From: Ovis canadensis
Taxonomy: Eukaryota > Chordata > Mammalia > Artiodactyla > Bovidae
Direction of reading: 5' to 3'
DNA: 64,000 nt
NCBI RefSeq assembly: GCF_042477335.2
Contig: NC_091727.1
Location: forward strand, 129,503,501-129,567,500
The notes under the pieces are model-generated. The model worked only from the letters and a program-made list of their open reading frames with translations, made no database searches and was not told the DNA's origin. This document shows positions 2,873-59,310 of the stretch, one piece after another; position 1 is the stretch's first letter; each line of letters opens with the position of its first letter. The position numbers were made by a program, and so were the translations under genes.

Positions 2873-3060
2873 ACTATGAACGTTCAATTGCTCAAACACC
2901 ATTTGTTGAAAAGGTTATCCTTCCTCCAATGAACTGCTTTTAAAAGAAGCTGGGTGTGTTTGTGTATGTCTATTTTTAGTTCTCTATTCTGTTTCAATGA
3001 TGCATGTCTATCCCTCTTCTAATGCCATACTGCCTTGATTACTATAGCTGTGTAGTAAAC
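2873..3060 (-). mobile_element. L1 ORF2 fragment (antisense)
   Basis: The segment resembles reverse-complemented L1 ORF2 (caaacaccatttgttgaaaa, tgccttgattactatagctg). It ends exactly where the BovB insertion begins. Confidence 0.7.
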
Positions 3061-3067
3061 CTTAATA
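3059..3067. repeat. Target-site duplication, left copy (accttaata)
   Basis: This 9-base string is repeated directly after the BovB tail at 4800-4808. It marks the outer limits of the rearranged BovB insertion. Confidence 0.65.
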
Positions 3068-3482
3068 GTTCTCTGATTCCTAGAATGCTGACATTCACTC
3101 TTGCCATCTCCTGTTTGACCACTTCTAATTTGTCTTGATACATGGACCTGACATTCCAGGTTCCTATGCAATATTGCTCTTTACAGCATTGGACCTTGCT
3201 TCTATCACCAGTCACATCCACAACTGGGTATTGTTTTTGCTTTGACTCCATCCCTTCATTCTTTCTGGAGTTATTTCTCCACTGATCTCCAGTAGCATAC
3301 TGGGCACCTACCAACCTGGGGAGTTCCTCTTTCAGTATCCTATCATTTTGCCTTTTCGTACTGTTCATGGGGTTCTCAACGCAAGAATACTGAAGTGGTT
3401 CGCCATTCCCTTCTCCAGTGGACCACATTCTGTCAGACCTCTCCACCATGACCCGCCCGTCTTGGGTGGCCCCACACGGCAT
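3068..3482 (-). pseudogene. BovB leader and endonuclease N-terminus (fragment)
   Basis: The minus-strand reading frame contains RVMVERSDRMWSTGEGNG, NDRILKEELPRLVGAQYATG, GTWNVRSMYQDKLEVVKQ and ARVNVSILGI. GTWNVRS with the following segment is the start of an RTE-type apurinic endonuclease domain. The frame is cut at the insertion boundary, so no catalytic region remains. Confidence 0.8.
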
Positions 3483-3624
3483 GGCTTAGTTTCATTAAGT
3501 TAGACATGGCTGTGGTCCGAGTGGTTAGATTCACTAGTTTTCTGTGATTATGGTTTCAGTGTGTCTGCCCTCTCATGCCCTCTCGCAACACCTACCGCCC
3601 TACTTGTGTTTCGCTTACCTTGGA

Positions 3625-4250
3625 TGTGGGGTATCTCTTCACGGCTGCTCCAGCAAAGCGCAGCCGTGGCTCCTTACCTTGGATGAAGGGCATCTCCTCA
3701 CCACCGCCCCTCCTGACCTTGATCTCGGAGTAGCTCCTCTTGGCCCTCCTGCACCCGTGCAGCCACTGCTCTTGGATGTGGGGTTGCTTCTCCCGGCCGC
3801 GGCCCCTGTCCTCAGGCGTGGGGTGGCTCCTCCTGGCCGTCGCCCCTGGCCTCGGGCTGGGAGTAGCTCCTCTCGGCCGCTCCTGCGCCATTGCAGCCTG
3901 GCACTCTCAGCTGCCGCCCCTGACCTCGGGCGTGGGATAGCTCCTCCCGGCCGCCCCTGACCTTGAACGTGGGGTTGCTCCTCCCTGCTGCCGCCCCTGA
4001 CCTCGAGCGTGAGGTAGCTCCTCCCGGCCGCCGACCCTGGCCTCGGTCGTGGGATAGCTCCTCTCGGCTGCTCCTGTGCCATCGCAGCCTGGCACTCTCG
4101 GCTGCTGCCTCTGACTTAGACGTGGGGTAGCTCCTCACGGCTGCTCCTGCACCATCACAGCCTGGCACTCTGCCGCTCCTGCGCTGTCACAGCCTGGCAC
4201 TCTCGGCCCCTGCCCCTGACCTCGGGCAAGAGGTAGCTCCTCTCGGCCAT
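3625..4250 (-). repeat. 40-base GC-rich monomer array in BovB 5' region (about 16 units)
   Basis: Degenerate units carry CTCCTCCCGGC, CCGCCCCTGACCTCGGGC and GGGGTAG blocks, read on the plus strand. They are the same monomers as in the large array at 55.5-58.4 kb. Copies here are more variable, and some spacings depart from 40 bases. The array ends at the shared terminal motif atgcttctgcacggtccgtc. Confidence 0.85.
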
Positions 4251-4277
4251 GCTTCTGCACGGTCCGTCGCAGCTGGC

Positions 4278-4799
4278 GAAACTTATGACCAACCTAGATA
4301 GCATATTCAAAAGCAGAGACATTACTTTGCCAACAAAGATCTGTCTAGTCAAAGCTATGATTTTTCCAGTAGTCATGTATGGATGTGAGTTGGACTGTGA
4401 AGAAAGCTGAGCACCAAAGAATTAATGCTTTTGAACTGTGGTGTTGGAGAAGACTCTCGAGAGTTCCTTGGACTGCAAGGAGATCCAACCAGTCCATTCT
4501 AAAGGAGATCAGTCCCGGGTGTTCTTTGGAAGGACTGATGCTAAAGCTGAAGCTCCAATACTTTGGCCACCTCATGCGAAGAGTTGACTCATTGGAAAAG
4601 ACTCTGATGCTGGGAGGGATTGGGGGCAGGAGAAGGGGATGACAGAGAATGAGATGGCTGGATGGCATCACCGACTCAATGGATGTGAGTCTGAGTGACT
4701 CCGGGAGATGGTGATGGACAGGGAGGCATGGCGTGCTGCGATTCTTGGGGTCACAAAGAGTTGGACCCGACTGAGCAACTGAACTGAACTGAACTGAAC
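4278..4799 (+). pseudogene. BovB 3' coding remnant and 3' end
   Basis: C-terminal BovB protein pieces are visible: [46 protein letters not shown] and [20 protein letters not shown]. The frame is broken and ends in the (ACTGA)n tail. This is the forward half of the twin-primed copy. Confidence 0.88.
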
Positions 4800-4808
4800 A
4801 CCTTAATA
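4800..4808. repeat. Target-site duplication, right copy (accttaata)
   Basis: This is a perfect match to 3059-3067 and directly follows the BovB tail. Confidence 0.65.
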
Positions 4809-30769: not shown

Positions 30770-32377
30770 ATGGCCTTGAAATCTGAGGACGTCAGTAGTG
30801 GGTTCCGGCATGGCAAAGTGATGGCTTTCATCAATGAGAGGATGTCCAGGCACGCGAAAGGCCCTGAGTTCTACCTTGAGAATCTTTCTCTGTCCTGGGA
30901 GAAGGTGGAAGACAAGCTCAGGGCCATCCTGGAGGACCGCCTGGTGCCCAGCCAGGCCAAAGAGGCCTGTGCCTGGAGCAGCCTGGCCCTGGGCGTGCGC
31001 TTCGCCTACAAGCAGAGCCAGTTACACAGGCATAGGGTGCAGTGGCTGCATGACTTCGCCGGACTGCACAGGTCGGCAGCTCAGGCGTTGGCCTCAGACC
31101 TGACGTTGCTCGCGGCACAGCATGAGGTGGAACGCAAGGAGGCGGCCTTCCGGCTGCAGTTGACCCAGGCCAGCCTAGCGGAAGTGCAGAAAGAGCGGGA
31201 CCTCCTGAAGTGGAAGATCTTCAAGGCCGTGAGATTATCTTCGCCTGCCCCGCGCGCCCCTGCCCCCCCCCCGCGCGCCCCTGCCCCCCCCGCGTGCCCC
31301 TGCCCCCCCCCGCGCACCCCTGCCCCCCCCCGCGCGCCCCTGCCCCCCCCCCGCGCGCCCCTGCCCCCCCCCCGCGCGCCCCTGCCCCCCCCCGCGCGCC
31401 CCTGCCCCCCCCCGCGCGCCCCTGCCCCCCCCCGCGCGCCCCTGCCCGACCCCGCCCCCCCGCGCCGCCCCCCCCGCGCCCCCCCCCTCTGCGCGCCCCC
31501 CGCCCCCCCGCGCCCCGCCCCCGCCCATTCCGTCCTGCTGCCCCGCCCCCCGCTCCACCCTCCCCCCCCGCCCCCCGCTCCACCCTCCCCCCCCCCAGCT
31601 CCACCCTCCCCCCCCCCCCGCCCCCCGCAGCCCCGCCCCATGTCAGGGCAGGTCGCAACTCTGCTCACTTCCTTCCAGGAGCTGCGGTCTTCCCAGGCGG
31701 CACCAGTCACAGAGGGGCCAAGCCGGGCCCCTGCCGGTGGGGCTGGAACAGAAGGAACAAGTGAAGAGGAGGAAGAGACAGGGGCCACTGCTACTACTGC
31801 TGCAGCTTCTGAAGCCACAGGAGGAGGAAGACAGGATGATGCAGAGGGGGCGGAAGCTGCCAAGGGGGCAGAAGATCTGAGTGCAGACCTTATGCAGCTT
31901 CTTGGAGTTGTAGACCAGAAAAATTACACTTCTGGCGGGCAGAGGGAGGGAGATTTTGGGTCAGTGGAAACAGCCATGTATTCTTTCTCTGGGATGCTCA
32001 AGCCCGAGGCAACAGTCTCACCTGAACCCCTTCCTGTCCAGCTCCCTGCCTCATTCTCATACTCATACTCATGCCCCTTATCCCCCTTCCCGGATGCACC
32101 AACACCATCCCCACACACATCTCCACCACAAGCACTGTTCAGAGCAGGAGCTTCATCTCAGACGTCTCCCCACTGGGGGTCCTCTGATTTTAGCTTGTGG
32201 TCTGATGGAGGGATCCAGGGAATAGACCCTCAAGGAGGAGACAGGAACGACTCTGATCCCCTTCAGCAGCTTAGACTTCCAGTATTTCACAGGCCTGGGA
32301 ATTGGGATTGCCCTTGGTGTAAATCTGTTAATTTTTCACTGAGGGGAAATTGTTTCCACTGTGGAAAGTGTATCTGA
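30770..32377 (+). CDS. TEX13B: TEX13-family testis-expressed protein, two coding exons (probably TEX13B)
   Basis: The model is join(30770-31228, 31679-32377), giving 385 residues. The start MALKSEDVSSGFRHGKVMAF is the conserved TEX13 N-terminus and has G at -3 and +4. The first exon continues through HAKGPEFYLENLSLSWEKVE, DKLRAILEDRLVPSQ and a helical, likely coiled-coil stretch (RKEAAFRLQLTQASLAEVQK, ERDLLKWKIFKA). The second exon starts ELRSSQAAPV, has an acidic/low-complexity part (residues about 170-210), then LMQLLG, SVETAMYSFSGM, and a C-terminal RanBP2-type zinc finger with Cys364, 367, 378 and 381 (WDCPWC ... NCFHCGK), ending shortly after. Such fingers bind single-stranded RNA in known proteins; testis expression and nuclear/cytoplasmic RNA-related function are family knowledge, not visible here. 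TEX13A is the main alternative: N-terminal residues favour TEX13B but are not decisive. No coding lesion was seen. Confidence 0.82.
   Translation: MALKSEDVSSGFRHGKVMAFINERMSRHAKGPEFYLENLSLSWEKVEDKLRAILEDRLVPSQAKEACAWSSLALGVRFAYKQSQLHRHRVQWLHDFAGLHRSAAQALASDLTLLAAQHEVERKEAAFRLQLTQASLAEVQKERDLLKWKIFKAVRLSSPAPRAPAPPPRAPAPPACPCPPPRTPAPPRAPLPPPRAPLPPPRAPLPPPARPCPPPRAPAPPRAPLPDPAPPRRPPRAPPLCAPPAPPRPAPAHSVLLPRPPLHPPPPPPAPPSPPPAPPSPPPRPPQPRPMSGQVATLLTSFQELRSSQAAPVTEGPSRAPAGGAGTEGTSEEEEETGATATTAAASEATGGGRQDDAEGAEAAKGAEDLSADLMQLLGVVDQKNYTSGGQREGDFGSVETAMYSFSGMLKPEATVSPEPLPVQLPASFSYSYSCPLSPFPDAPTPSPHTSPPQALFRAGASSQTSPHWGSSDFSLWSDGGIQGIDPQGGDRNDSDPLQQLRLPVFHRPGNWDCPWCKSVNFSLRGNCFHCGKCI
31229..31678 (+). 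other. C-rich intron of the TEX13-family gene
   Basis: GT at 31229-31230 directly follows KIFKA, and AG at 31677-31678 (cacttccttccag) precedes ELRSS. Both flanks agree with the TEX13 family, where this join gives continuous protein. The interior is an irregular repeat of about 19-20 bases (ccccgcgcgcccctgcccc) and nearly pure C/G. It is 450 bases, divisible by three, with no plus-strand stops, so a 609-residue proline/alanine-rich frame reads straight through it. Confidence 0.78.
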
Positions 32378-51770: not shown

Positions 51771-52254
51771 TATTGATACAGAAAGCAAATAACAAACAAG
51801 AGTAGATCAATAAAAGGAAGTGATAGTTCTTTGAAAAAACAAGAGTGAACAAATTTTTAGCAAGTGTGATTTCAAAAATAAAGCCATTTAAATTAACATA
51901 AAAATGAAAGAGAACCAAACTACAAAAACGAGAAATTAAAAAATTATCCAAAAACTACTATGTATAATCCTTCTAGCAATTCTAAAAATCTAGGTTAAAT
52001 GGATAATTTACAAGAAAATAAACAACCAAAATTGGCCTAAGAAATAGAAAACATGAAAAGGCCAATTGATCATGGAAGAATGTGAAATGATAATACTCTA
52101 CCTCAAAAGTCACTGGCTCTAAAAACTTTTGTGAACTGGCTCCAAAAAGTTCTGTGATAGAGTCTGACCACACCAGCAAGGAACAGATTAACCAAACGTT
52201 ATACAAAATTTTCCATAGCAAAGTAAAAGAAGGGAAATGACACCATACAGCTAT
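51771..52254 (+). mobile_element. L1 ORF2 fragment, left of the big BovB
   Basis: L1 ORF2-like (gtgatagttctttgaaaaaa, aatttttagcaag). Its continuation appears after the BovB at 58446 (cttgataccaaaaactgaca), so BovB landed inside it. Confidence 0.65.
52243..52254. repeat. Target-site duplication, left copy (ccatacagctat)
   Basis: Matches ccatacaactat at 58446-58457 with one mismatch in 12. Confidence 0.7.
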
Positions 52255-52268
52255 CAATTCAGTTCAGT

Positions 52269-55200
52269 TCAGTCGCTCAGTCGTGTCCGACTCTTTGCGA
52301 CCCCATGAATCGCATCACGCAAGGCCTCCCTGTCCATCACCAACTCCCGGAGTTCACTCAGACTCACGTCCATCGAGTCGGTGATGCCATCCAGCCATCT
52401 CATCCTTGGTCGTCCCCTTCTCCTCCTGCCCTCAATCCCTCCCAGCATCAGAGTCTTTTCCAATGAGTCAACCCTTCACATGAGGTGACCAAAGTATTGG
52501 AGTTTCAGCTTTAGCATCATTCCTTCCAATGAACACCCAGGAACTGATCGCCTTCAGAATGGACTGGTTGGATCTCCTTGCAGTCCAAGGGACTCTCAAG
52601 AGTCTTCTCCAACACCACAGTTCAAAAGCATCAATTCTTTGGCACTCAGCTTTCTTCACAGTTCAACTCTCACATCCATACATGACTACTGGAAAAACCA
52701 TAGCCTTGACTAGATGGACCTTTGTTGGCAAAGGAATGCCTCTGCTTTTGAATATGCTATCTAGGTTGGTCATAACTTTCCTTCCAAAGAGTAAGTCTTT
52801 TAATTTCATGGCTGTAATCACCTTCTGCAGTGATTTTGGAGCCTCCAAAAATAAAGTCTGGCATTGTTTCCAATGTTTCTCCACCTATTTCCCATGAAGT
52901 GATGGGACCAGATGCCATGATCTTCGTTTTCTGAATGTTGAGCTTTAAGTCAACTTTTTCACTCCCCTCTTTCACTTTCATCAAGGAGCTTTTTAGTTCC
53001 TCTTCACTTTCTGCCATAAGGGTGGTATCATCTGAATATCTGAGGTTATTATTGATATCTCTCCCAGCAATCTTGATTCCACCTTGTGTTTCTTCCAGCC
53101 TAGCATTTCTCATGATGTACTCTGCATATAAGTTCAATAAGCAGGGTGACAATAGACAACCTTGACGTACTCCTCTTCCTATTTGGAACCACTCTGTTCT
53201 TCCATGTCCAGTTCTGACTGTTGCTTCCTGACCTACATACAGATTTCTCAAGAGGCAGGTCAGGTGGTCTGGTATTCCCATCTCTTTCAGAATTTTCCAC
53301 AGTTTATTGTGATCCACACAGTCAAAGGCTTTGGCATGGTTAATAAAGCAGATTTTTCTCTGAAACTCTCTTGCTTTTTCCATGATCCAGCAGATGTTGG
53401 CAATTTGATCTCTGGTTCCTCTGCCTTTTCTAAAACCAGCTTGAACATCAGGAAGTTCATGGTTCACATATTGCTGTAGCCTGGTTTGGAGAATTTTTAG
53501 CATTACTTTACTAGCATGTGAGATGAGTGTAATTGCGCAGTAGTTTGAGAATTTTTTGACATTGCCTTTCTTTGGGATTGGAATGAAAACGGACTTTTTC
53601 CAGTCCTGTGGCCACTGCTGACTTTTCTAAATTTGCTGGCATACTGAGTGCAGCACTTTCACAGCATCATCTTTCAGGATTTGAAACAGCTCAACTGGAA
53701 TTTCATCACCTCCACTAGCTTTGTTCATAGTGATGCTTTCTAAGGCCCACTTGACTTCACATTCCAGGATGTCTGGATCTAGGTGAGTAATCACACCATC
53801 GTGATTATCTGGGTTGTGAAGATCTTTTTGTACATTTCTTCTGTGTATTCTTGCCACCTCTTCTTACTATCTTCTGCTTCTGTTAGGTCCAGACCATTTC
53901 TGTCCTTTATCGAGCCCATCTTTGCATGAAATGTTCCCTTGGTATCTCTAATTTTCTTGAAGAGATCTCTGGTCTTTCCCATTCTGTTGTTTTCCTCTAT
54001 TTCTTTGCATTGATCACTAAAGAAGGCTTTCTTATCTCTCCTTGCTATTCTTTGGATCTCTGCACTCAGATGCTTATATCTTTCCTTTTCTCCTTTGCTT
54101 TTCATTTCTCTTCTCAGCTATTTGTAAGGCCTCCCCAGACAGCCATTTTGCTTTTTTGCATTTCTTTTCCATGGGGATGGTCTTGATCCCTGTCTCCTGT
54201 ACAATGTCACAAACCTCAGTCCATAGTTTATCAGGCACTCTATCTATCAGATCTAGGCCCTGTAATTTATTTCTCACTTCCACTGTATAATCATAAAGGA
54301 TTTGATTTAGGTTATATCTGAATGGTCTAGTGGTTTTCCCCACTATCTTCAATTTAAGTCTGAATTTGGCAATAAGGAGTTCATGATCTGACCCACAGTC
54401 AGCTCCTGGTCTTGTTTTTGCTGGCTGTATAGAGCTTCTCCATCTTTGGCTGCAAAGAATATAATCAATCAGATTTCAGTGTCAACCATCTGGTGATGTC
54501 CATGTGTAAGAGTCTTCTCTTGTGTTGTTGGAAGAGGGTGTTTTCTATGACCAGTGCTTTCTCTTGGCAAAACTCTTGCCCTGCTTCATTTCGTACTCCA
54601 AGACCAAATTTGCCTGTTACTCCAGGTGTTTCTTGACTTCCTACTTTTGCATTCCAGTCCCTTAGAATGAAAAGGACATCTTTTCTGGGTGTTAGTTCTA
54701 AAAGGTCTTGTAGGTCTTCATAGAACCGTTCAACTTCAGCTTCTTCAGTGTTACTGGTTGGGGCATAGACTTGGATTACTGTGATATTGAATGGTTTGCC
54801 TTGGAAACGGACAGAGATCATTCTGTCATTTTTGAGATTGCATCCAAGTACTGCATCAGACTCTTGTTGACCATGATGGTTACTCCATTTCTTCTAAGGG
54901 ATTCCTGCCTACAGTAGTAGCTATAATGGTCATCTGAGTTCATCAAATTCATCCATTCCAGTCCATTTTTGTTCACTGATTCCTAGACTGTCAATGTTCA
55001 CTCTTGCCATCTCCTGTTTGACCACTTCCAATTTCCCTTGATTCATGGACCTGACATTCCAGGTTCCTATGCAACGCTACTCTTTACAGCATCGGACCTT
55101 GCTTCTATCACCAGTCACACCCACAACTGGGTACTGTTTTTGCTTTGACTCCATCCCTTCATTTTCTGGAGTCATTTCTCCACTAATCTCCAGTAGCATA

Positions 55201-55400
55201 TTGGGCACCTACCGACCTGGGGCGTTCCTCTTTCAGTGTCCTATCATCTTGCCTTTTCATACTGTTCATGGCGTTCTCAAGGCAAGAATACTGAAGTGGT
55301 TTGCCATTCCCTTCTCCAGTGGACTACATTCTGTCAGACCTCTCCACCATGACCCACCCATCTTGAGTGGCCCCACACGGCATGGCTTAGTTTCACTGAG
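52269..55400 (-). pseudogene. BovB endonuclease-reverse transcriptase, broken
   Basis: Pieces in order on the minus strand: endonuclease (FNITVIQVYAPTSNTEEAEV, RDWNAKVGSQETPGVTGKFG), linker (RNKLQGLDLIDRVPDKLWTE, DQCKEIEENNRMGKTRDLFK), RT (KASGGDEIPVELFQILKDDA, QAGFRKGRGTRDQIANICWI, RQGCLLSPCLLNLYAEYIMR), and C-terminus ([40 protein letters not shown]). At least six frame breaks occur. The catalytic box reads RYSDDTTLMAE, serine replacing the alanine of YADD in sister copies. The copy is not autonomous now. Confidence 0.9.
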
Positions 55401-55529
55401 TTAGACAATGGCTGTAGTCCTAGTGTGATTAGATTCACTAGTTTTCTGTGATTATGGTTTCAGTGTGTCTGCCCTCTCATGGTCTCTTGCAACACCTACC
55501 GTCTTATTTGCGTTTCTCTTACCTTGGAT

Positions 55530-58415
55530 GTGGAGTATCTCGTCACGGCTGCTCCAGAAAGCGCAGGTGCTGCTCCTGACCTTGAATGTGGAGTAGCTCC
55601 TCTCGGCCCTCCCGTGCCCGCCCAGCCACTGCTCCTTGGACCTGGGGTAGCTCCTCCCGGCTGACCGTGATTTCCGGCAGGGCGTAGCTCCTCCCGGGTG
55701 CCGCCCCTGGCCTCGGACATGGGATAGCTTCTCCCGGCCTCCGCCCCTAGCCTCGGGCGGGGGGTAGCTCCTCCCGGCCACTGCCCCTGACCTCGGGCGG
55801 GGGGTAGCTCCTCCCGGCTGACCCTGAACTGCAGTGCAGGGTAGCTCCTCCTGGCTGCCTCCAGACCTTGGGCGGGGGTTAGCTCCTCCCGGTACCACCC
55901 CTGACCTGCAGCGTGGGGTAGCCCTCCTGGCCGCCACCCCTGGCCTCGGGCGGGGGGTAACTCCTCTCGGCCGCAGCCCCTGACCTCGGGTGTGGGGTAG
56001 CTCCTCCCGGTCTCCGCCCCTGACCTCGGGCAGGGGGTAGCTCCTCCCAGGTACCCGAGACTTTGAGCGTGGCGTAGCTCCTCCCGGCCATCGCCCCTGG
56101 GCTCAGATGTGGGGTAGCTCCTCCTGGTACCACCACTGACCTGTGGCGTGGAGTAGCTCCTCCCAGCCACTGCCCCTAATCTCGGGCAGGGGGTAGCTCC
56201 TCCCGGCCTCCGCCCCTGACCTCGGGCGGGGGGCAGCTCCTCCCGGTACCACCCCTGACCTGCGGCGTGGGGTAGCTCCTCCCGGCCATCTCCCCTGACC
56301 TTGGACATGGGGTAGCTCCTCCCGGCTACCACCTCTGACCTGCCATGTTGGGGAGCTCCTCCCGGCTACCACCCCTGACCTTGGGTGTGGGGTAGCTCCT
56401 CCCGGCTACCACCCCTGACCTCGGGCAGGTGGTAGCTCCTCCTGAGCACTGCCCCTAACCTCGGGCAGGGGGTAGCTCCTCACGGACGCCACCCCTGACC
56501 TCGAGCAGGGGGTAGTTCCTCCCAGCCGCCTACCCTGACCTCGGATGTGGGGTAGCTCCTCCCGGCCTCCGCCCCTGACCTCCGGCAGGGGGTAGATCCT
56601 CCGGGCTACCCAAGACTTCAGGCGTGGCGTGGCTCCTCCCGGCCACTGCCCCTAGCCTCGGACAGGGGGTAGCTCCTCCCAGCCGCCGCCCCTGGCCTCA
56701 GACGTGGGGTAGCTCCTCCTGGTATCACCCCTGACCTGCAGAGTGGGGTGGCTCATCCCGGCCACCCCCCAACCTCGGGCATGGGGTAGCTCCTCCCAGC
56801 GGCTGCCCCTGACCTCAGGTAGGGGGTAGCTCCTCCCGGGCACTGCCCCTGACCTCGGGCATGGGGTAGCTCCTCCCGGCCACCGCCCCTAGCCTCGGGC
56901 AGAGGGTAGCTCCTCCCAGCTACCACCCCTGACCTGCGGCGGGGGGTAGCTCCTCCCGGCCGCTGCCCCTAACCTCGGGCATGGGGTAGCACCTCCTGGC
57001 CGCCGCCCTGGCCTCGGACGTGGGATAGCTCCTCTCGGGCGCCACTCCTGGCCTCGGGCTGGGGGTAGCTCCTCTCGGCCGCCGCCCCTGGCCTCAGGCG
57101 GGGGGCAGCTCCTCCAGGCAGCCCCTGAGCTCAGGCGTAGGGTGGCTCGTCCCAGCCGGCCGCACCTGGCCTCGGGCATGGGGTAGCTCCTCCCAGCCGC
57201 GCCTGACCTCGGGGGTAGGGTAGCTCCTCCCGGCTACCACCCCTGACCTGTGGTGGGGGGAGCTCCTCCCAGCCACTGCCCCAAACCTCAGGCGTGGGGT
57301 ATCTCCTCCCGGCTGCTGCCCCTGACCTCGGGCGGGTTGTAGCTCCTCCCGGCTACAACCCCTGACCTCGGGCGTGGGGTAGCTCCTCCCAGCCACCTCC
57401 CGTGACCTTGGACGTGGGGTAGCTCCTCCCGGCTACCACCTCTGACCTGCGGTGTGGGGGAGCTCCTCCCGGCTACCAACCCTGACCTCAGGTGTGGGGT
57501 AGCTCCTCTCGGCCGCCCTTGACCTCGGGCGTAGGGTAGCTCCTCCCGGACGCCGCCCCTGGCCTCGGACATGGGGTAGCTCCTCCCAGCCGCTGCCCCT
57601 GACCTGGGGCGGGGGGTAGCTCCTCCTGGCCGCCGCCCCTGACCTCGGGCGGTGGTTAGATCCTCCCGGCTACCCGAGACTTTCAGCGTGGCATAGCTCC
57701 TCCCGGCTGCCACCCCTGGGCTTGGACGTGGGGTAGCTCCTCCCGGCCGCCGCCCCTAACCTCGGGCGGGGGGTAGCTCCTCCAGGCCGCCTCACCTGAC
57801 CTCGGATGTGGGGTAGCTCCTCCCGGCCTCTGCCCCTGACCTCGGGCGGGGGATAGCTCCTCCCAGCCGCTGCCCCTGACCTCGGGCAGGGCGTAGGTCC
57901 TCCCGGCCGCCACCCCTGACCTCGGGCAGGGGGTAGCTCCTCCAGGCCGCCTCCCCTGACCTCAGATGTGGGGTAGCTCCTCCCGGCCGCCACCTCTGGC
58001 CTCGGGCATGGGGTAGCTCCTCCTGGCTGCCCCTGACCTCGGGCGTAGGGTGGCTCCTGTTGGCTGCCCCTGACCTCGGGTGTAGGGTAGCTCCACCTGG
58101 CCGCAGCCCCTGGGTTCGAACGTGGGGTAGCTCCTCCCGGTACCACCCCTGACCTGCGGTGTGGGGTAGCTCCTCCCGGCCGCCGCCCCTGGCCTCGGGC
58201 ACTGGGTAGCTCCTTCTGGCTGCCGCCCCTGACCTCGGGCAGGGTTAGCTCCTTCCGGCCGCCGCCCATGACCTCGGACATGGGGTAGCTCCTCCTGGCT
58301 ACCACTCCTGACCTCGGGCAGTCGGTAGCTCCTCCCGGCCGCCCCTGACCTCAGGCCGGGGGTAGCTCTTACTGGCCACCACCCGTGATCTCAGGCGAGG
58401 GATAGCTCCTCTCGT
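55530..58415 (-). repeat. 40-base GC-rich monomer array, about 72 units
   Basis: The GGGTAGCTCC core recurs at exact 40-base steps, for example 57731, 57771, 57811, 57851, 57891 and 57931. Plus-strand units contain CTCCTCCCGGCCGCC, GCCCCTGACCTCGGGC and GGGGTAG, are CpG-rich, and include GGGCGGGG boxes like Sp1/GC boxes. Because 40 is not divisible by three, successive units rotate through three frames on the minus strand and produce long alternating peptides (EELPHARGQGR, PGGATPRPRSG, AGRSYPTPEVRG). These frames are a by-product of the repeat, not evidence for a protein. Confidence 0.95.
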
Positions 58416-58445
58416 CTATGCTTCTGCGCGGTCCATTGCAGCTGC
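58395..58445 (-). promoter_or_regulatory. Shared BovB 5' terminus
   Basis: The array ends with atgcttctgcgcggtccatt followed by gcagctg, then unrelated flank. The same string with three differences closes the array at 4247-4277. It is probably the RNA 5' end or close to it, making the adjacent array the candidate promoter. Confidence 0.55.
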
Positions 58446-59310
58446 CCATACAACTATAGACTAGTATAATCTTGATACCAAAAACTGACAAAGGTAAAGG
58501 AAAGAGATAACAAGGTAAGGGAAAGAAATTATAGGTCCATCTCACTTATGAACCTAGATATAAAAATACATAACCTTAATACCATAATCAAGGTCATTAT
58601 TTTTACAGAGGTCATTATTTTTTACAGAGATGCTGATCACATTTTTGCTAGAACAATTCTTCATTTAGTATCCCTGATCCCTATTGACTAAATGCCAGCA
58701 GGAGTCCTCACACACATACATTAATAAACTATAAAAACTGAAAACACGTCTAGACATTTCCAAATGTCCCCTAAAGCAGTGGTTCAGCTTCAGGCTGAGG
58801 ATCAATACTATAGGCAATCTCACTTATGAACACAGATACAAAACCGCTAATACAAGATTAGTCCCTCAAACCCCACAGTACATTAAAAAGAAAAAAAAAA
58901 CCACACACACATCATGCTCTCATCTAAGTTAATACTAGGAAAGCAGGAAGTATAACCTTTATAGATCTGTCACTGTGGAACAGGACACCAACTCCTTACT
59001 TGGAAAATTGGCAATTACAGGGAGAATTAAGCATTTATCTTGTCTTTCATATAGGAACTGTATTTTAGGCTCACCAAATAGCCCCAGTAGAGAAGGGATA
59101 GTTCTTCTTACAGAGGTATACTAGCTAATACATTCAGAAAGAATAATAGAAATAGAAAATCATCATTATGAAATCTTTTACAAAATAATTGACTTAGATA
59201 GCAGTTATGGATGGTAAAACCATTAGGTAAAAGGATGATGGAGAACTTTACAATGACGGGATCAGATTAACACCACTTCAATTTACCATCCAAGTTATCT
59301 TATATACCCT
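58446..59310 (+). mobile_element. L1 ORF2 fragment, right of the big BovB
   Basis: Begins with the right target duplication ccatacaactat, then L1 ORF2-like cttgataccaaaaactgaca and ggtccatctcacttatgaac. A second L1-like block (caatctcacttatgaacaca) at 58815 suggests a duplication or second copy. 58740-58800 may hold a hAT MITE scrap. Confidence 0.6.

What the first reader, a model, noticed from the sequence alone, without database searches (positions are those of the whole stretch)
52255..58445. BovB copy of about 6.2 kb whose 5' half is a 40-base GC-rich monomer array
Sequence shows a complete insertion: 3' tail, coding region, leader, about 72 monomers, a defined 5' end, and 12-base flanking duplications with one mismatch. 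Known BovB consensus sequences are about 3.2 kb and are not described, to my knowledge, with such an array. By analogy to mouse L1 monomers, the array may be an internal promoter whose length varies by copy. This is my best candidate for an undescribed system in the window.
Basis: partly seen in the sequence, partly recalled or inferred. Interest (0 to 1): 0.8.

Follow-up and report, generated by a model that had tools for sequence, protein, structure and literature searches.

The report
BovB LINE with monomer-array 5' leader
A sheep-like genome's BovB jumping genes carry, ahead of their coding part, a short run of a GC-rich 40-base repeat that varies from copy to copy; in this X-chromosome copy it has grown to about 70 repeats, much like the repeat-built promoters of mouse L1 elements, although promoter activity here is untested.

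Summary
Window 52255-58445 (minus strand) is one BovB insertion: 3' tail, broken coding region, leader, a 40-base array (TRF 69.2 copies, 55684-58411), a 29-base 5' unit, and 12-base flanking duplications with one mismatch. The contig is the X chromosome (Xist exon 4) of a 2.97-Gb, sheep-like genome. The array belongs to BovB. A second BovB in the window carries the same unit and 5' end. The 5'-end motif has 78 matches genome-wide, control 0; 29 of 30 loci read have monomers beside it. Of 20 copies read over 8 kb, 18 have 2-9 unit cores, so this one is a hyperexpanded outlier. Two array queries each rank the same four longest arrays first, all on X. Six of seven other long arrays checked lead into BovB leader and body. 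Monomers resemble their own array most, so arrays grow locus by locus; a simple model suggests this copy landed with about 25 units. Best reading: a monomeric 5' UTR, probably an internal promoter, behaving as a minisatellite. Promoter activity and other ruminants were not tested.

The parts
52243..52254 (+). target-site duplication, 3' side of the element (CCATACAGCTAT)
   Evidence: 11 of 12 match to 58446-58457; 4 of 600 random pairs score as high
52255..55540 (-). BovB body as used here for alignments: 3' tail of CTGAACTGAA type, broken coding region and the ORF-side part of the leader
   Evidence: 6 of 20 fetched genome copies align over its whole length in one piece at 87-90% identity
52757..53626 (-). 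reverse transcriptase segment of the broken coding region
   Evidence: Pfam RVT_1, E 2.5e-30
55381..55683 (-). leader ('tether'-like) between ORF start and array, with degenerate units spaced 54, 58 and 23 (copy L067 has 54, 40, 59, 23); ATG equivalent at 55383-55381. Overlaps the body as defined above
   Evidence: ATG position inferred from the ORF start seen in L067
55684..58411 (-). array of about 70 GC-rich 40-base monomers, consensus GGGAGGAGCTACCCCACGCCCGAGGTCAGGGGCGGCGGCC in BovB sense
   Evidence: TRF; monomer split and consensus
58417..58445 (-). 29-base 5' unit at the element's 5' end (module A)
   Evidence: one of 78 genome matches to the 5'-end motif, control 0
58446..58457 (+). 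target-site duplication, 5' side (CCATACAACTAT)
3068..4275 (-). second BovB in the window: inverted 5' part with ORF start, leader, about 11 cores (TRF array 3778-4068) and the same 29-base 5' unit (4248-4275)
4276..4799 (+). second BovB: 3' part in the opposite orientation (twin-priming-type 5' inversion); ACCTTAATA at 3059-3067 and 4800-4808 on the two sides
   Evidence: read directly from the sequence; no control was run on this duplication

Best explanation
The array is the expanded 5' untranslated region of a BovB (RTE-clade) LINE. Shown: BovB copies of this genome that keep their 5' end share one plan, namely a terminal module (29-base type A, or a second type around GGCGCACTRAGCG), a few 40-base monomers, a degenerate leader, then the ORF. 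Shown: monomer number differs between copies, and a few copies carry arrays of about 1-5.7 kb, the four longest found being on X. Inferred: the monomers are an internal RNA polymerase II promoter or enhancer block that travels with the transcript. Having several units lets a daughter copy keep a promoter when transcription starts inside the array or reverse transcription stops short. The same tandem structure makes the array a minisatellite that grows by block duplication. This copy probably landed with a few tens of units and gained more at about that time. The low-recombining X may keep such long arrays better than autosomes do.
For: Array joined to BovB repeatedly: 78 motif matches, control 0; 29 of 30 loci read, both window copies included, have at least one monomer core just downstream; 6 of 20 copies read over 8 kb run from 5' unit to 3' end with the body in one aligned piece. 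Of 7 copies fetched only for coding similarity (of 39 non-window matches), 5 begin to align only at body positions 146-244; the 2 that reach further both carry monomer cores, 8 and 3. Of 7 other long arrays whose flanks were read, 6 continue into leader and body in sense. A second 5' module precedes the same monomer: 328 matches, control 0. Locus-wise growth: with groups of equal size, 82% of this array's monomers and 94% of the X:24.7 Mb array's have their nearest relative in their own array, against 33% expected. X:24.7 Mb holds a block 14 monomers apart with 0% difference over 12 monomers, while its body has about 4.7% own-branch divergence over some 610 bases. A growth model fits this copy best with about 25 founding monomers. 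Promoter hint: the recalled NR5A/ESRR-type site YCAAGGYCA is in 15 of 17 short 5' UTRs (21 sites; shuffle mean 0.35, maximum 3); GGGGCGG occurs 15 times in this array against 3.9 in shuffles. CpG observed/expected is 0.49 in the array and 0.20 in the body.
Against: No transcription data. The copies share ancestry, so 15 of 17 motif-bearing copies is not 15 independent events; 3 of the 20 copies were left out of that count (L060, L069, L070); seven motif patterns were tried, and YY1, E-box, CRE and TATA were absent. Of 280 consensus CpG places in the 70 monomers only 109 are still CG and 106 read TG or CA, which points to germline methylation, that is silencing, of this copy. 5' ends do not pile up at one position, so no fixed start site is shown. 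Of the 20 copies, L069 has no core and L060 one. The X:103.4 Mb array ends in foreign sequence without a leader, and at X:65.2 Mb only 72 bases of body follow before another, inverted BovB piece. X share among the 40 array loci (9 of 40) is no higher than among 5'-motif matches (14 of 78; p 0.28), so only the extreme lengths are X-biased, on four loci, and both array queries came from X arrays. In the growth model no gradual-growth run fitted both measures, and its mean pairwise difference is above the observed one in the fitting runs.
Confidence: 0.66

Rival explanations
1. Passive minisatellite: the units are a non-functional tandem repeat caught at the 5' end of BovB, replicated with it, and expanded by slippage and unequal exchange; the promoter lies elsewhere (leader or flanking DNA).
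For: Locus-wise homogenisation and a very recent block duplication in an old copy; CpG decay; no fixed 5' start.
Against: 18 of 20 copies read keep 2-9 cores at the same place, with the GGAGGAGCTACCCC stretch among the least variable columns of the array; two different 5' modules sit on the same monomer.
Confidence: 0.27
2. A pre-existing GC-rich satellite at this locus into which an ordinary BovB of about 3.2 kb happened to insert.
For: Published BovB sizes are far below 6 kb (about 3.5 kb in PMC13295347, passage); the TSD match is short, with one mismatch, and not decisive in a wider search.
Against: The same unit and the same 5' end occur at many unrelated BovB copies, the flanking duplications bracket array and body together, and the second BovB in the window carries it too.
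Confidence: 0.02
3. The long array was generated in the source element and copied whole; long-array copies descend from one long-array BovB lineage, active mostly on X.
For: The growth model needs about 25 founding monomers in this copy, more than the 2-9 cores of 18 of 20 copies read; the four longest arrays are on X.
Against: Against this array, other long arrays are 69-79% alike over matches of 700 bases or more, no closer than distant parts of this array (77-79%), and monomers cluster by locus. Only one other long array (L074) was read in full.
Confidence: 0.2

Closest known systems
Mouse L1 (L1Md A, Gf, Tf) monomeric 5' UTR
   Same: Tandem monomers at the 5' end, separated from the ORF by a non-monomeric stretch (tether); unit number varies by copy; alternative monomer types.
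   Different: Different LINE clade (RTE, not L1), unit 40 bases instead of about 200, arrays of up to about 140 units, a separate 29-base terminal unit, promoter activity not shown. (PMC6454616, PMC9022269: passages seen.)
Ruminant BovB / RTE-1_Gir
   Same: Same family by coding part, 3' tail type and ORF start (name partly recalled).
   Different: The giraffe consensus is 3,872 bp (PMC8620236, passages) and a recent survey gives about 3.5 kb full length (PMC13295347, passages); the passages seen mention neither monomers nor a 3-kb 5' UTR.
SVA-type VNTR inside a retrotransposon
   Same: VNTR of 35-50-base units carried by a retrotransposon.
   Different: SVA is a non-autonomous composite (recalled); here the VNTR is the 5' UTR of an autonomous-type LINE. 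(PMC5753468, passage seen.)

Membership tests
BovB (RTE-clade LINE) | reverse transcriptase of LINE type | tested here: met
   Pfam RVT_1 2.5e-30 in the window copy
BovB (RTE-clade LINE) | AP-type endonuclease domain upstream of RT | tested here: inconclusive
   Fragments 54465-54893, 54074-54475 and 53791-54117 gave no Pfam hit at 0.001; the frame is broken
BovB (RTE-clade LINE) | short 3' end with (CTGAA)n tail | tested here: met
   Sequence at 52255-52280; tail type as reported for cattle in PMC13295347 (passage)
BovB (RTE-clade LINE) | target-site duplications | tested here: met
   12 bp, one mismatch; 4 of 600 controls reach it; wider search not decisive for this copy
BovB (RTE-clade LINE) | sequence membership of the ruminant BovB family | tested here: inconclusive
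   Belongs to an abundant family of this genome (5669 first-look candidates, 40 scored, best others 92-93%); no reference BovB sequence was at hand, so the name rests on tail, size and recall
L1-like monomeric promoter | tandem units at the 5' end of many copies, number varying | tested here: met
L1-like monomeric promoter | units drive transcription | not testable with these tools
   no expression data
L1-like monomeric promoter | common 5' start inside the unit | tested here: inconclusive
   5' ends lie at many offsets in and upstream of the 29-base unit
L1-like monomeric promoter | sequence homology to mouse L1 monomers | not tested
   no L1 monomer sequence was compared; only the YY1 motif was sought, and was absent from the 17 short 5' UTRs and this array
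Local satellite | array independent of BovB | tested here: not met
   6 of 7 other long arrays checked run into BovB leader and body

The most novel reading that the evidence does not exclude
RTE-clade BovB elements independently evolved a modular, monomer-built internal promoter: 40-base units, possibly carrying nuclear-receptor (NR5A/ESRR-type) sites, with interchangeable 5' modules. On the X chromosome some of these promoters hyperexpanded into kilobase CpG-rich arrays that could act as multi-site regulatory or chromatin elements.
Probability: 0.35. Interest if true: 0.72.

Novelty: new variant of a known kind. Interest (0 to 1): 0.55.

Why it matters
RTE/BovB makes up around 25% of ruminant genomes (stated in PMC8620236, passage), yet the searches made here found no description of how the element is transcribed. 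A monomeric 5' UTR gives BovB a concrete candidate promoter, could explain why published full-length sizes differ, offers markers for subfamilies (5' modules), and makes convergence between RTE and L1 promoters testable. The X-linked giant arrays are likely polymorphic VNTRs.

Tried and rejected
Pre-existing satellite: rejected by recurrence in other BovB copies.

Contaminant ruminant contigs, to test other species: two-unit pattern scans of genome contigs (3 hits: two Bacillus records, one Frankia) and viral contigs (12 hits, no organism named) were listed only and not analysed. The tool says records of or near the window's own genome may be left out. Other species remain untested.

A wide TSD search over 9 copies: the best pair exceeded the highest of 40 controls in 2 (L055, L068) and not in 7, the window copy among them. 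The narrower test of the window copy is.

Pfam search for an endonuclease in the broken frames found nothing.

YY1, E-box, CRE and TATA motifs were absent from the 17 short 5' UTRs and this array.

Literature: searches listed no paper whose title or shown abstract describes BovB 5' tandem units (one search listed 12 of 723, one search listed 20 of 26). Only open-licence PMC papers are held, and supplements could not be opened. Papers were seen only as search listings and found passages; none was read whole.

Full report
What is there. The minus strand of window 52255-58445 reads, in BovB sense: a 29-base 5' unit, about 70 GC-rich 40-base units, a leader of degenerate units, a broken coding region with a reverse transcriptase segment (Pfam RVT_1, 2.5e-30) and a CTGAACTGAA-type 3' end. 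Flanking duplications of 12 bases with one mismatch lie exactly at both ends; 4 of 600 random pairs of flank positions score as high, while a wider search was not decisive (observed 8, highest of 40 controls 11). The ATG that opens the ORF in copy L067 corresponds to 55383-55381 here, so the 5' UTR of this copy is about 3.06 kb, against about 0.4 kb in L067, the one copy measured.

Where it is. The window is on contig C28 of a 2.97-Gb genome with contigs of 281, 256 and 232 Mb, a sheep-like karyotype (recalled). Rfam Xist_exon4 has a single match in the genome, on C28 (119 bits), so C28 is the X chromosome.

It belongs to BovB. The window holds a second copy, 3068-4799, whose 5' part is inverted against its 3' part (twin-priming type) between ACCTTAATA repeats; it carries the same monomers and the same 29-base 5' unit (read). 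Genome-wide the 5'-end motif has 78 matches with up to 2 mismatches and 0 in the reversed control; two pairs of matches are neighbouring units of one locus, so these are 76 loci, the two window copies included. Thirty loci were read over 3 kb: 29 of 30 have at least one monomer core just downstream; the 28 outside the window have 0-7 by that strict count. Twenty of them were read over 8 kb: by a looser count 18 of 20 have 2-9 cores, one has 1 and one has none; 6 of 20 have the whole body in one aligned piece behind the 5' unit; 9 of 20 have an inverted BovB piece directly upstream of the 5' end. The other 46 loci were not read. These samples were chosen by the 5' motif. A check without that choice: of 7 other copies fetched for coding similarity (of 39 non-window matches), 5 begin to align only at body positions 146-244, and the 2 that go further both carry cores, 8 and 3.

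Two 5' modules. Besides the 29-base unit (module A), arrays on C12 (two), C13 and C17 begin with variants of another sequence around GGCGCACTGAGCG, itself tandem in one case (L081). Joined to the first monomer this has 328 matches with up to 3 mismatches, control 0. So the same monomer block sits behind alternative 5' modules.

How long, and where. A 1001-base query from this array scored 40 loci, 9 of them on X, out of 4267 first-look candidates; the longest spans are X:24.74 Mb (about 5.5 kb; 5.7 kb when read in L074), X:65.23 Mb (3.4 kb), this copy (2.8 kb), X:103.4 Mb (1.3 kb), C17:16.74 Mb (1.28 kb) and C12:67.98 Mb (1.1 kb). A query from the X:24.74 Mb array gave the same four X loci first. 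Both queries come from X arrays and only 40 candidates were scored each time, so this is not a census. All four longest being on X has p 0.0014 given 9 of 40, and the top three p 0.0085; ranks 4 and 5 are nearly tied. X is also enriched in 5'-motif matches generally: 14 of 78, against 4.9% of the genome, p 2e-5. Flanks of 7 other long arrays were read: 6 lead into leader and body in sense (one, X:65.2 Mb, for only 72 bases of body before an inverted BovB piece); X:103.4 Mb does not.

How it grew. Monomers of this array differ by 26% on average and by 17% from their consensus. With groups of equal size (48), nearest relatives are in the same array for 82% (this copy) and 94% (X:24.7 Mb) of monomers, against 33% expected. 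X:24.7 Mb has 142 cores and a block 14 monomers apart with no difference over 12 monomers (559 bases, coordinates), although its body is about 4.7% diverged on its own branch: arrays keep changing after insertion. This copy's own branch is 4.6% and its best internal block match is 11.7% different over 6 monomers, so its growth is old. In a simple growth model with that branch length, the observed 16 monomer clusters and 8.5% nearest distance fall together inside the 5-95% ranges only for growth at insertion from about 25 founders; no gradual-growth run tested fits both, and the simulated mean pairwise difference is then above the observed one. The model assumes that array and body mutate at equal rates, which may be wrong.

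What it does. No expression data were available, so function is inferred. Position upstream of the ORF, retention of a few units in most copies read, variable number and alternative 5' modules are what mouse L1 monomer promoters show (PMC6454616, PMC9022269, passages). The array is CpG-rich (observed/expected 0.49 against 0.20 in the body), but of 280 consensus CpG places 109 remain CG and 106 read TG or CA, which suggests methylation in the germ line. A recalled NR5A/ESRR-type site is in 15 of 17 short 5' UTRs (three of the 20 copies left out); relatedness of copies makes this a lead only. The main rival is a passive minisatellite.

Novelty. Published sizes are 3,872 bp in giraffe (PMC8620236) and about 3.5 kb (PMC13295347); the passages seen mention no monomers. 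Searches showed no title or abstract on it; subscription papers, Repbase and supplements were not seen, so prior description cannot be excluded. I file it as a new variant of a known kind: an RTE element with an L1-style monomeric 5' UTR.

Noticed in passing
window 3068-4799: Second BovB copy with a 5' inversion (twin-priming type), ACCTTAATA on both sides, and the same array and 5' unit.
   Followed up: partly
L054, L057, L059, L061, L063, L066, L070, L071, L072: 9 of 20 copies with a 5' end have an inverted BovB piece directly upstream of that end: 5' inversion seems very common among BovB copies that keep the 5' end.
   Followed up: partly
L081, first 300 bases or so (C12:67978500 on): The second 5' module forms its own near-perfect tandem array of a unit of about 35 bases upstream of the 40-base monomers.
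   Followed up: no
L074 (X:24.74 Mb): A BovB 5' array of about 142 cores with a very recent block duplication at 559 bases, likely polymorphic.
   Followed up: partly
C28:67121535-67122265: A BovB-type array of about 0.7 kb lies about 0.27 Mb from the Xist exon 4 match; its flanks were not read.
   Followed up: no
leader of BovB copies, e.g. L059 and L067 5' UTR: CCAAGGTAAG sequences resembling splice donors recur in the leader.
   Followed up: no
window 31248-31628: C-rich minisatellite with units of about 20 bases; it looks unlike the BovB unit by eye, not compared by any tool.
   Followed up: no
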